Assembly: GCF_003573915.1 (NCBI RefSeq)
Contig: NZ_AP014608.1
Span: 360,001 to 424,000 of the forward strand
DNA from: Blattabacterium cuenoti STAT
GTDB lineage: Bacteria; Bacteroidota; Bacteroidia; Flavobacteriales; Blattabacteriaceae
Direction: 5' to 3'
Length of the DNA: 64,000 nt
Positions 1,189 through 9,101 of this stretch are shown here, piece after piece (within the stretch, counting starts at the first letter, position 1; each line of letters begins with the position of its first letter). A model generated the notes under the pieces. The model saw only the letters and a list, made by a program, of their open reading frames with translations, did not search any database and was not told the DNA's origin. The translations under genes were made by a program, and so were the position numbers.

Positions 1189-2232
1189 ATGAAAACTTCA
1201 GATTTTGATTTTAAATATCCTATAAATCTTCTTGCTAAATTTCCTACTCAAGAAAGAGATGAGTCCAAATTAATGATTATTCATAGAAAAAATAAAAAAA
1301 TAGAACATAAATTTTTTAAAAATTTACATGAATATTTTGAGGAAGGAGATACTTTAATTCTTAATAATACTAAGGTTTTTCCTGCAAGATTATTTGGAAA
1401 TAAGGAAAAAACAGAAGCCAAAATAGAGGTTTTTTTACTTAGAGAATTAGATCCAAAAGATAGAACATGGGATGTATTAGTTGATCCCGCAAGAAAAGTA
1501 AGAGTAGGAAACAAATTAAATTTTGGAAATGAATTGACAGGAGAAGTTATAGATAATACTACTTCTAGAGGAAGAATCTTACAACTTAATTTTAATGGAT
1601 CACATAAAAAACTTATAAAGAAAATAAAGGAATTAGGAAAAACTCCTTTACCCAAATATATTAATAGAAAACCAGAAAAAAACGATAAAATACGTTATCA
1701 AACTATATATGCAAAAGAAGAAGGATCCGTAGCAGCACCTACAGCTGGATTACATTTTTCAAAACATTTATTAAAAAAATTAGAAATAAAAGGAATTAAT
1801 TTAGTAGAAGTTACTTTACATTTAGGCTTAGGAAGTTTTTTACCTGTGGATGTTGAAGATATATCAAAACATAAAATGGACTCTGAAAAATGTTTTATAA
1901 ATGAAAATACATGTAAAATAGTAAATTTTGCTATACAAAGAAAAAAAAAAATTTGTGCTGTAGGAACTTCTTCTATGAGAGCAATTGAAAGTTCTGTTTC
2001 TTCCAAAAAAAAATTAAATCCATTTTATGGATGGACCAATAAATTTATTTTTCCTCCATATAATTTCAATATAGCCAATTCTATGATTACAAATTTTCAC
2101 ATGCCAAAATCTACATTACTTATGATGACAGCCGCTTTTGCGAATTTTGATTTAATAAAAAAAGCCTACCAAATAGCAATAGAAAAAAAATATAGATTTT
2201 ATTCTTATGGAGATGCTATGTTAATATTATAA
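1189..2232 (+). CDS. queA: S-adenosylmethionine:tRNA ribosyltransferase-isomerase
   Basis: QueA transfers and isomerises the ribosyl part of S-adenosylmethionine onto preQ1 at tRNA position 34, giving epoxyqueuosine. The 347-residue protein has the full family length. Visible signatures are [10 protein letters not shown] at 59-68, [12 protein letters not shown] at 179-190, [12 protein letters not shown] at 209-220 and the late [11 protein letters not shown] block. The ATG start matches the usual N-terminus. It is first in a plus-strand run with the prenyl synthase (37-base gap) and topA, and reads away from the 16S gene. No defect is seen. A notable 11-A run (1941-1951) is crossed in frame. 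Confidence 0.96.
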
Positions 2233-3259: not shown

Positions 3260-5367
3260 ATGAAAAAAAATTTGGTGATCGTAGAATCCCCAACTAAAGC
3301 TCATACAATACAAAAATTTCTTGGAAAAAATTATAGTGTCGTATCTAGTTATGGACATATTATAGATTTACCAGAAAAAGAAATAGGAATTAAAATTCAA
3401 GAAAATTTTAAACCCAATTATGTAATATTATCTAAAAAAAAAAAATTATTCAAAATCTTAAAAATTTAATTGAAAAACATGAAATTATTTGGCTAGCTTC
3501 TGATGAAGATCGTGAAGGAGAATCAATTGCCTATCAAATTTATAAAACATTTAATATACCTAGTGAAAAATACAAAAGAATAGTTTTTCACGAAATTACA
3601 AAAAAAGCTATTTTACGTTCTTTAAAAAATCCAAGATCAATTGATTATAATTTAGTTTATGCTCAACAAACTAGACGAATTATAGATCGATTAGTAGGAT
3701 TTCAATTATCTCCTATTTTATGGAAAAAAATAAAAACAGGACTATCTGCTGGTAGAGTTCAGTCTGTTGCTGTAAAATTAATAGTGGAACAAGAAAAAAA
3801 AATTCAAAATTTTATTCCTTGTTCAGTTTATCAAATAACTGGAACTTTTACTAATTCTGAAAAAAAAATAAGTCTTAATGCTAAATTTGAAAAAAAAATA
3901 GAAGACAAAAAAAAATTGAAGAATATTTTATCATTATGTATTAATAGTATTTTTAAAATAAAAAAAATTGTTAAAAAAAAAGAAGAAAAAAGTCCACCAT
4001 TTCCGTTTACCACTTCTTCTCTACAACAGGAAGCTTTCTATAGACTAAATTATTCCATATATAAAACGATGTTGTTAGCTCAAAAATTGTATGAAAAAGG
4101 ATTTATTACATACATTCGAACAGATAGTACCAATTTATCAAAAAGTATATTATTAGATATTAAAAATTTTATACTTTCTTCATATGGAAAAAAATATTTA
4201 TCTATAAAAAAATTTTATATAAAAAAAAATAGACTATCTCAAGAAGCTCATGAAGCAATTCATCCTACTATCATTAATTTTGAAAAAGATTATCTAAATT
4301 CTTTAGAAGAATCTCAAAAACGTCTTTATAAACTAATATGGAAACGAACAATCATAGGACAAATGAAAAATGCAATTTTTGAAAAAAAAGATATTTATAT
4401 TCAATCTTCTCATTTGAAAGAAAATTTTTTTATTTGTACAAAAAAAACTGTTTTATTTGATGGATTTATGAAAATATCAAATAAAGAAAAAAAACTTGAT
4501 CTTGATACAAAAATTATAAAAGGGGCTTTTTTAGAAAGAAAAGAAATCACTGCTAAACAAACTACTAAAAATCATTTATATAGATACAACGAGGCTAGCT
4601 TAGTAAAAAAATTGGAACAACTAGGAATCGGAAGACCTTCTACTTACGTTCCCACTATTCTTACTATTCAAAAAAGAAATTATATTGATATACAAAAAAT
4701 TTCAAAAAAAATAGAAACACGTGAAACTTTTCTCTTAAAAGGAGATATTATTACTAAAAAAAATGACAAAATTATTGAAATAGAAAAAAACAAATTTTTT
4801 CCTACAGAAATGGGTATTTTAACTACTAATTTTTTAAAAAAAAATTTTTATGAAATAATAAATTATAGTTTTACTGCAAAATTAGAAGAAAAATTTGATA
4901 ATATAGCTAAAGGAAAACAATCTTGTATTAAAGTTCTTGAAGACTTTTACAATGAATTTTACAAAAAAATACAATATGTTAAAAACAATGTAGATAAAAT
5001 TCACAAAAAACGTCTTCTTGGAAAAGATCCAAGATCTAAAAAAGAAATTTTTGTAAGAATAGCAAAATATGGACCAGTTATTCAAATAGGAGAATTTCAT
5101 AAAAAAGATAAACCAAAATTTTATCCTTTATTAAATAAACAAAAAATAGAAGAAATATCTTTAATAGAAGCTTTAAAAATTATTGAATTACCAAAATTAT
5201 TGGGAACTTTTAAAGAGAAAGAAATTTTATTGAAAATTAACAAATATAATATTTATATTAAATATAATAATAAATCAATTCCAATTGATGAAAAAATTTT
5301 TTTTGAAAATTCATTGAATTTAGAAAAAGCCATTAACATTATAATAGAAAATACAAAAGGTAAATGA
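3260..5367 (+). CDS. topA: DNA topoisomerase I, reading frame broken at a 12-A tract
   Basis: TopA relaxes negative supercoils. The Toprim domain starts in one frame ([19 protein letters not shown], residues 4-22) and runs into twelve A (3434-3445). The frame then hits a stop at 3467-3469. The rest of the protein continues without a stop in the next frame from the end of the tract to 5367, including the acidic SDEDREGE motif (from about 3499) and the active-site tyrosine in TYIRTDST (codon 4111-4113, about Y285). One extra A would restore a single 702-residue protein. No CxxC zinc ribbons are seen at the C-terminus, so it is shorter than E. coli TopA. The intact downstream sequence argues for transcript slippage or a sequencing error rather than a dead gene. 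Confidence 0.93.
3434..3445 (+). repeat. A12 homopolymer at the topA frameshift
   Basis: Twelve consecutive A separate the two topA frames. Homopolymers of this length are known sites of RNA-polymerase slippage in A+T-rich insect endosymbionts, where a share of transcripts regains the correct frame. Here 13 A (or 10 A) would join the frames. Confidence 0.9.
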
Positions 5368-7796: not shown

Positions 7797-8378
7797 ATGA
7801 AAAAAGGAAAAATGATTATTTTATCAGGTCCTTCTGGATCTGGAAAAACTACTATTTCACATTGTTTACTTTCAAAATTTACAGAATTAAAATTTTCTGT
7901 TTCATGTACTACACGATCGATTCGAAATAATGAAATACATGGAAAAGATTATTATTTTTTATCTGTAAATTCTTTTGTTTCTAAAATAAAAAAACATCAA
8001 TTCGCAGAATGGGAAGAAGTGTATCCTAAGTTATTTTACGGAACTTTAAAAGACGAAATTTTTAAAATTTGGAAATCAAATAAACATATTTTGGTCGATA
8101 TAGATGTAAAAGGAGGAATAAATTTAAAACAACAATATCCTAATAATTCTTTATCCATATTTATAATGGTGAATTCTATAAAAATTTTAAAAAAAAGATT
8201 ATTTACAAGATCTTTTTTTGAAAAAAATAATAAAACAAATATAAACGTCCGTTTAAATAAAGCTAGAAAAGAAAATAGCTATGCAAAATTATTTGATTTT
8301 ATTTTATTCAATATTGACTTATATCAAACAAAAAAAGAAGCAATTCATATTGTTTCCAATTTTATTCATGGAAAATAA
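7797..8378 (+). CDS. gmk: Guanylate kinase
   Basis: Gmk phosphorylates GMP to GDP. The P-loop GPSGSGKT is at residues 11-18, followed by the GMP-binding SVSCTTRS segment and the HGKDYYF motif. The GTLKDEI helix and the VDIDVKGG segment are also in place. Length (193) is normal. It is divergent from asd across 62 bases. It ends 7 bases before the tRNA-Pro-like gene, which lies on the opposite strand. Confidence 0.95.
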   Translation: MKKGKMIILSGPSGSGKTTISHCLLSKFTELKFSVSCTTRSIRNNEIHGKDYYFLSVNSFVSKIKKHQFAEWEEVYPKLFYGTLKDEIFKIWKSNKHILVDIDVKGGINLKQQYPNNSLSIFIMVNSIKILKKRLFTRSFFEKNNKTNINVRLNKARKENSYAKLFDFILFNIDLYQTKKEAIHIVSNFIHGK

Positions 8379-8385
8379 ACAATAA

Positions 8386-8463
8386 TCGGGGTGACTGGAA
8401 TAAATCCAGTTATCACATGCCCCCCAGACATGTGTATACATTAACTAATTAAATGACACCCCG
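8386..8463 (-). tRNA. Highly divergent tRNA-Pro (GGG), possibly degenerate
   Basis: On the minus strand CGGGGTG (8457-8463) pairs perfectly with CACCCCG, followed by discriminator A (8386). The T stem ACTGG/CCAGT is perfect. The anticodon arm is CATGT-CTGGGGG-GCATG, giving T33 and anticodon GGG with a purine at 37. Departures from the norm are a T loop of ATTTATT instead of TTCRANN, a D region about four bases too long with no GG pair, and an anticodon stem extendable to 7 bp. The minus strand is favoured because its stem has a T-G pair where the plus strand has C-A. It follows tRNA-Asn by 4 bases. Intact stems suggest selection, but function is uncertain. Confidence 0.6.
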
Positions 8464-8467
8464 ATGA

Positions 8468-8541
8468 CTCCTCAGGCTGGATTCGAACCAGCGACACCCT
8501 GATTAACAGTCAGGTGCTCTAACCAGCTGAGCTACTGAGGA
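8468..8541 (-). tRNA. tRNA-Asn (GTT)
   Basis: The 74-base gene folds into a standard cloverleaf. The acceptor TCCTCAG pairs with CTGAGGA, with discriminator G. The D arm contains AGCTGGTTAGAG, the anticodon loop is CTGTTAA with GTT, and the T loop TTCGAAT is canonical. Its first 23 bases also encode the last codons and the stop of rpiB, which reads in the same direction, so the two gene products must share this DNA. Confidence 0.97.
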
Positions 8542-8974
8542 TTTTAGGAATTTTTTCTATTCTTCTTTTATGCCTTCCTCCTTCAAAATTTGTTTTCAAA
8601 AAAATTTCTACAATTTCTATAATTTCACTTTTATTTATAAAACGAGCCGGAAAACTAATAACATTAGCATTATTATGTTTTCTTGCTAAAATAGCAATTT
8701 CTTTGTTCCATACTAAAGCTGCACGAATTTTATTGTATTTATTAGCCGTCATAGCTGCTCCATTTCCACTTCCACATATAATAATTCCAAAATTAGCTTT
8801 TCCTTGATTTACAAATTTTGCTGTAGGATGAATAAAATCTGGATAATCAACTCGTTTTCCATTATTTTCCGAAAATCCAAAATCTTTGATTTTATAACCT
8901 TGTTCAATTAAAAAATTGTTGATTGCATATTTATAATGTATTCCCGTATGATCAGATCCTATTGCTATTAACAT
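8519..8974 (-). CDS. rpiB: Ribose-5-phosphate isomerase B
   Basis: RpiB interconverts ribose 5-phosphate and ribulose 5-phosphate in the pentose phosphate pathway. With the ATG start at 8974 (a TTG five codons earlier is less likely) it has 151 residues. Active-site motifs are GSDHTG (6-11), CGSGNG with the catalytic cysteine at 67, and KHNNANVISFPAR with His100. The reading frame continues 23 bases into tRNA-Asn and stops at a TAG formed by the tRNA D loop, giving a C-terminal tail KILSSSAG. Either the mRNA carries an unprocessed tRNA sequence or tRNA cleavage removes the stop. Confidence 0.93.
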   Translation of the reverse strand: MLIAIGSDHTGIHYKYAINNFLIEQGYKIKDFGFSENNGKRVDYPDFIHPTAKFVNQGKANFGIIICGSGNGAAMTANKYNKIRAALVWNKEIAILARKHNNANVISFPARFINKSEIIEIVEIFLKTNFEGGRHKRRIEKIPKILSSSAG

Positions 8975-9101
8975 TACATTTTTTTGCAAAAAAAAAACAG
9001 GAGTAAATATACACTAAAAATTTGGTTTTTTTTATTATTTTTATTGTTATAACATGTTAAACATGACAATTAATGTTTATCATATATTACACTATACTAT
9101 A

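What the first reader, a model, noticed from the sequence alone, without database searches (positions are those of the whole stretch)
8386..8463. tRNA-Pro(GGG) with intact stems but a lost T-loop/D-loop elbow
Acceptor and T stems pair perfectly and the anticodon loop CTGGGGG is normal for proline. The T loop is ATTTATT in place of TTCRANN, the D region is about four bases longer than usual and lacks GG, and the anticodon stem can extend to 7 bp. Preserved pairing argues against random decay, while loss of the elbow resembles mitochondrial-type tRNAs. It could be functional and divergent, or a redundant isoacceptor in early decay.
Basis: partly seen in the sequence, partly recalled or inferred. 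Interest (0 to 1): 0.6.

Follow-up and report, generated by a model that had tools for sequence, protein, structure and literature searches.

The report
Elbow-less proline tRNA in cockroach symbiont
A spare proline tRNA gene in the cockroach symbiont Blattabacterium has lost the loops that normally lock a tRNA into its L shape, yet its paired stems and anticodon look protected by selection, so it is either a pared-down working tRNA or a structured relic that most related strains have already discarded.

Summary
Minus strand 8463-8386 is a tRNA-Pro(GGG) gene with perfect acceptor, T and anticodon stems, an intact CUGGGGG loop, T loop AUUUAUU, AG instead of GG in the D loop, and 4 extra nt before the anticodon stem. 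ARAGORN misses it and Rfam scores it 24.7 bits (cut-off 29). The genome is Blattabacterium. All 49 genus genomes keep tRNA-Pro(TGG), 93-100% identical. The GGG gene, always between gmk and tRNA-Asn, is ARAGORN-intact in 20, a remnant in 11 and gone in 18, implying at least 15 losses. So it is dispensable and repeatedly lost. Here, however, decay is not random. D arm, variable loop and T loop lost 7 of 10 G/C bases, as silent sites did (52-65%); acceptor, T stem and anticodon loop lost 1 of 25. Folding stability equals intact genes (P=0.004 against random placement of the same substitutions). Three other copies (G015, G024, G036) share the pattern; seven other remnants do not. I favour a redundant tRNA whose elbow constraint lapsed while stems and anticodon stayed selected. 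A non-decoding structural relic, or an ordinary pseudogene, remain live rivals. No expression data were available.

The parts
8386..8463 (-). tRNA-Pro(GGG) gene or relic, 78 nt including A73, no encoded CCA
   Evidence: Rfam RF00005 24.7 bits; synteny and alignment with 20 intact orthologues
8457..8463 (-). acceptor stem 5' strand CGGGGTG, unchanged
   Evidence: 0/7 changes
8438..8454 (-). decayed D arm ATTT-AATTAGTTA-ATGT; 7 of 17 sites changed, G18 to A
8433..8436 (-). 4-nt insertion TACA between D arm and anticodon stem (placement within the arm is ambiguous)
   Evidence: comparison with G015, G016, G021
8416..8432 (-). anticodon arm CATGT-CTGGGGG-GCATG; pair 29-41 changed on both sides (C-G to U-A)
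8423..8425 (-). anticodon GGG, unchanged
8406..8410 (-). T stem 5' strand ACTGG (G49 to A turns G.U into A-U)
8399..8405 (-). T loop ATTTATT, 4 of 7 sites changed, U54 and C56 lost
8394..8398 (-). T stem 3' strand CCAGT, unchanged
8387..8393 (-). acceptor stem 3' strand CACCCCG, unchanged
8468..8541 (-). intact tRNA-Asn(GTT), immediately upstream on the same strand
   Evidence: ARAGORN and Rfam 71.8 bits
7797..8378 (+). gmk (guanylate kinase), convergent neighbour
   Evidence: Pfam PF00625 E=2e-35
8519..8989 (-). rpiB-like isomerase ORF upstream; its mechanical 3' end overlaps tRNA-Asn
   Evidence: Pfam PF02502 E=4e-52

Best explanation
This is the ancestral tRNA-Pro(GGG) gene of Blattabacterium, made redundant by tRNA-Pro(UGG). 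Selection on the D-loop/T-loop elbow has lapsed and those parts have drifted to AT-rich sequence at the neutral rate, while the acceptor stem, T stem, anticodon stem and anticodon loop have stayed under purifying selection. Shown: redundancy, repeated loss, and unequal constraint within the gene. Inferred: that the constraint exists because the RNA is still made, processed and at least occasionally charged with proline, so the molecule works as a pared-down, mitochondrial-type tRNA on a path that usually ends in loss.
For: tRNA-Pro(TGG) present in all 49 genomes, 93-100% identical; GGG gene ARAGORN-intact in 20, remnant in 11, gone in 18, at least 15 losses on the tree. In this copy 1/31 sites changed in acceptor + T stem + anticodon loop against 14/31 in positions 8-9, D arm, variable loop and T loop (P=0.0002). 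G/C loss 1/25 against 7/10; silent G/C loss on the same branch 52-65%, giving P=3e-7 or less for the held parts while the loops match neutral. Same substitutions placed at random rarely fold as well (P=0.004; G015 0.0065; G024 0.002; control G011 0.62). Anticodon G34-36: 1 of 12 bases changed in the four structure-keeping copies against 7.3 expected (P=3e-5), and the one change (G036, GGG to AGG, depending on how its 8-nt loop is read) is still a proline anticodon. C1-G72 and A73 are kept in G000, G015, G024 and G036.
Against: No RNA data. G18, U54 and C56, normally among the most constrained tRNA positions, are the ones lost here, whereas a copy in plainly random decay (G011) still has them. 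G015 has an extra G in the anticodon loop and G036 an 8-nt loop and a replaced D region, so at least two copies with the same stem pattern probably do not decode normally. Bacterial EF-Tu needs the T arm (PMC4013460), and G024 has lost its canonical T stem. The site partition was chosen after seeing the sequence, and the alignment was made by hand.
Confidence: 0.42

Rival explanations
1. Non-decoding structural relic: the stems are kept because the RNA structure at the 3' end of the tRNA-Asn transcript matters (processing, 3'-end stability or termination), as with plant mitochondrial t-elements, while tRNA function is gone.
For: Stability and stems, not tRNA consensus bases, are what is kept; G036 keeps acceptor and T stems perfectly with D arm and anticodon loop wrecked. 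T loops of G000 and G036 allow extra pairing into the loop. G024's outer stem extends to 12 bp beyond the tRNA ends (sequence). Derived G.U pairs (C27U in G015 and G036; 7-66 and 30-40 in G024) all suit the tRNA strand.
Against: Genomes that lost the gene have no replacement structure in the spacer (z about 0), so no such element is needed. Other convergent gene pairs in the window have spacers of 0-25 nt. The anticodon triplet is kept, which a hairpin does not need. No terminator-like signal lies within the gene itself.
Confidence: 0.28
2. Ordinary pseudogene of a redundant tRNA; the stem/loop contrast is chance plus favourable choice of this copy among 11 remnants.
For: Repeated loss across the genus; seven other remnants show no structure clearly beyond chance; GGG-Pro is a known auxiliary, frequently lost tRNA (Wald and Margalit, PMC4041420); loss of U54, C56 and G18 is what loss of function looks like.
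Against: G/C retention in stems and anticodon loop against 52-65% silent loss; similar results in G036 and G024; the control copy G011 behaves differently.
Confidence: 0.25
3. Mutational process: template switching at inverted repeats keeps correcting one stem strand from the other, so stems stay paired without selection.
For: Two-sided changes (29-41 in G000; 4-69 and 27-43 in G024) and hairpin lengthening are what such switching gives.
Against: Correction in both directions does not by itself keep stems G/C-rich, nor preserve the unpaired anticodon; observed conservation is of sequence as much as of pairing.
Confidence: 0.05

Closest known systems
Bacterial tRNA-Pro(GGG), an auxiliary isoacceptor
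   Same: Position, anticodon GGG, C1-G72, A73, acceptor/T/anticodon stems; free-living relatives in the order reach 93% identity with intact Blattabacterium copies
   Different: G18, U54, C56 and canonical D stem lost, 4-nt insertion, scores under the Rfam tRNA cut-off
Metazoan mitochondrial tRNAs with reduced D/T loops (PMC4013460)
   Same: AT-rich loops, elbow consensus lost, stems and anticodon kept
   Different: Bacterial gene, one tRNA of the set only, redundant; expression and charging unknown
Plant mitochondrial t-elements (PMC11658184)
   Same: tRNA-like stems retained in a gene-flanking position without the full tRNA consensus
   Different: t-elements are shown to be cleaved, CCA-tailed and not charged; none of that was tested here, and the anticodon is conserved here
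Decaying or lost tRNA genes of reduced symbiont genomes
   Same: Redundant isoacceptor lost many times in a reduced, AT-rich genome
   Different: Decay is uneven: loops at the neutral rate, stems and anticodon held

Membership tests
Canonical bacterial tRNA | Rfam RF00005 score at or above gathering cut-off | tested here: not met
   24.7 bits against 29; not called by ARAGORN
Canonical bacterial tRNA | 7-bp acceptor, 5-bp anticodon and 5-bp T stems | tested here: met
   all pairs standard
Canonical bacterial tRNA | D loop G18G19 and T loop TTCRANN | tested here: not met
   A18 G19; ATTTATT
Canonical bacterial tRNA | mature, CCA-ended, charged RNA | not testable with these tools
   no RNA data held
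tRNA-Pro (isoacceptor identity) | A73, G72, G35, G36 (prolyl-tRNA synthetase determinants known from E. coli, from memory) | tested here: met
   C1-G72, A73 and GGG present in sequence
Redundant (auxiliary) tRNA | another isoacceptor able to read the codons is present | tested here: met
   tRNA-Pro(TGG) at C1:39478-39552 and in all 49 genomes; that it reads all four CCN codons is inferred from the lineages that lost GGG
Randomly decaying pseudogene | changes spread evenly over stems and loops at the neutral rate | tested here: not met
t-element | cleaved by RNase P/Z and not charged | not testable with these tools
   needs RNA sequencing

The most novel reading that the evidence does not exclude
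A bacterium uses a translation-active tRNA that lacks the canonical D-loop/T-loop elbow, and this mitochondrial-type state has arisen more than once in Blattabacterium as a step towards losing a redundant tRNA.
Probability: 0.3. Interest if true: 0.75.

Novelty: new variant of a known kind. Interest (0 to 1): 0.45.

Why it matters
How tRNAs lose their elbow is known mostly from mitochondria, where the intermediates are long gone. Here 49 related genomes show one dispensable tRNA gene in every state from intact to absent, including copies with freed loops and constrained stems, so the order of loss and what selection still sees can be tested directly.

Tried and rejected
IQ-TREE failed on thread number and then timed out; FastTree used instead. 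Gene conversion from tRNA-Pro(TGG) as the source of the clean acceptor stem: rejected, its acceptor is CGGGGTA/TACCCCG, not CGGGGTG/CACCCCG. Overlap with gmk coding as the source of conservation: rejected for this copy, gmk stops at 8378, before 8386; it may hold for G017, G045, G020 and G047, where the gmk alignment runs into the spacer. Inversion of the T loop: not a clearly better fit than point changes (by eye). Loop and D-arm changes selected for extra pairing: not supported (P=0.25). tRNA-Ile/Ala looked missing from this genome, but the stretch is masked with N. MAFFT misaligned the D region and T arm of several remnants, so a hand alignment was used. Literature searches found no report of this gene's state.

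Full report
The window lies in a 631,621-bp Blattabacterium chromosome (G000:C1:360001-424000; a genus relative is B. cuenoti). At 8386-8463 on the minus strand, directly after tRNA-Asn and convergent with gmk, the sequence reads as a tRNA-Pro with anticodon GGG. ARAGORN does not call it, Rfam gives it 24.7 bits against a cut-off of 29, and it folds into a cloverleaf-like structure with z about -3.5 to -4.4.

Comparison. I took the syntenic stretch from all 49 genus genomes. The GGG gene is called intact by ARAGORN in 20, is a recognisable remnant in 11 by my reading and is gone in 18. Intact copies are nearly uniform, always with UUCAA(A/G)U and GG, and free-living relatives in the order reach 93% identity. 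tRNA-Pro(TGG) is present in all 49 at 93-100% identity. On a tree from seven neighbouring genes, assuming no regain, there are at least 15 losses. This genome is sister to G015 (remnant) plus G016 (intact), so its change is independent of G015's. The gene is therefore dispensable; GGG-Pro is also a known auxiliary tRNA in bacteria at large (PMC4041420).

Uneven constraint. Against the intact ancestor, this copy has 1 change in 31 sites of acceptor stem, T stem and anticodon loop, and 14 in 31 sites of positions 8-9, D arm, variable loop and T loop (P=0.0002). The single stem change turns G.U into A-U. One anticodon-stem pair changed on both sides (C-G to U-A). Neutral yardstick: of silent G/C third positions in seven genes, 52-65% became A/T on this branch. 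D arm, variable loop and T loop lost 7 of 10 G/C, in line with that; acceptor, T stem and anticodon loop lost 1 of 25 (P=3e-7 or smaller). Placing the same substitutions at random gives folds this stable in 0.4% of trials.

Other copies. G036 keeps acceptor and T stems (1 of 24 changed against 10 of 14 elsewhere, P=2e-5), though its D region is replaced and its anticodon loop altered. G024 keeps acceptor stem and anticodon loop, with two-sided changes at 4-69 and 27-43, but has lost the canonical D and T stems; silent loss there is 91%. G015 keeps stems with an extra loop G. Fold z-scores fall in two groups: about -3.7 to -5.8 for these four, and near zero (down to about -1.5) for the other seven remnants on the tRNA strand. 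G011 shows what even decay looks like: stems and anticodon hit, elbow bases still present. Two-sided acceptor changes by eye are also present in G044 (4-69) and in G037 (6-67, ARAGORN-intact).

What the constraint is for. Kept anticodon bases (1 of 12 changed against 7.3 expected, P=3e-5), C1-G72 and A73 point towards translation. Against that, the lost elbow bases are ones tRNAs normally cannot spare, and G015 and G036 have 8-nt anticodon loops. A structural role at the transcript end is possible, but genomes without the gene have no replacement structure, and other convergent pairs in the window have spacers of only 0-25 nt. I give 0.42 to a still selected, pared-down tRNA, 0.28 to a non-decoding structural relic, 0.25 to a plain pseudogene and 0.05 to template switching.

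Limits. The partition was chosen after reading the sequence, though the other copies were then scored with the same one. The alignment is by hand, because MAFFT misplaced several arms. Silent sites were taken where two or three relatives agree. The four similar copies represent three or four origins, since G024 and G036 may be sisters (support 0.46). There are no RNA data, so transcription, processing and charging are all untested.

Noticed in passing
window 3260-5367: A topA-like reading frame (named by eye) is split: the first 69 codons are in one frame and the rest in another, with the shift at a run of about 12 A near 3433-3444. Such poly(A) shifts in symbionts are sometimes rescued by transcript slippage (from memory).
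   Followed up: partly
L023 (G015) 2086-2160, minus strand: The G015 copy of tRNA-Pro(GGG) has one extra G in the anticodon-loop G run, as in known +1 frameshift-suppressor proline tRNAs (sufA6, from memory).
   Followed up: no
L097 (G024), gmk/tRNA-Asn spacer: The remnant's outer stem extends to 12 perfect base pairs (TAATATCGGTGT/ACACCGATATTA), beyond the tRNA ends.
   Followed up: no
L013 60-180 (G000:C1:601649-601725): A tRNA with anticodon CAT and a normal elbow scores 63 bits with Rfam but is not called by ARAGORN.
   Followed up: partly
G000:C1:357000-360000: This stretch next to the 16S gene is masked with N in the held genome, so tRNA-Ile and tRNA-Ala, which G016 has there, cannot be seen.
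   Followed up: yes
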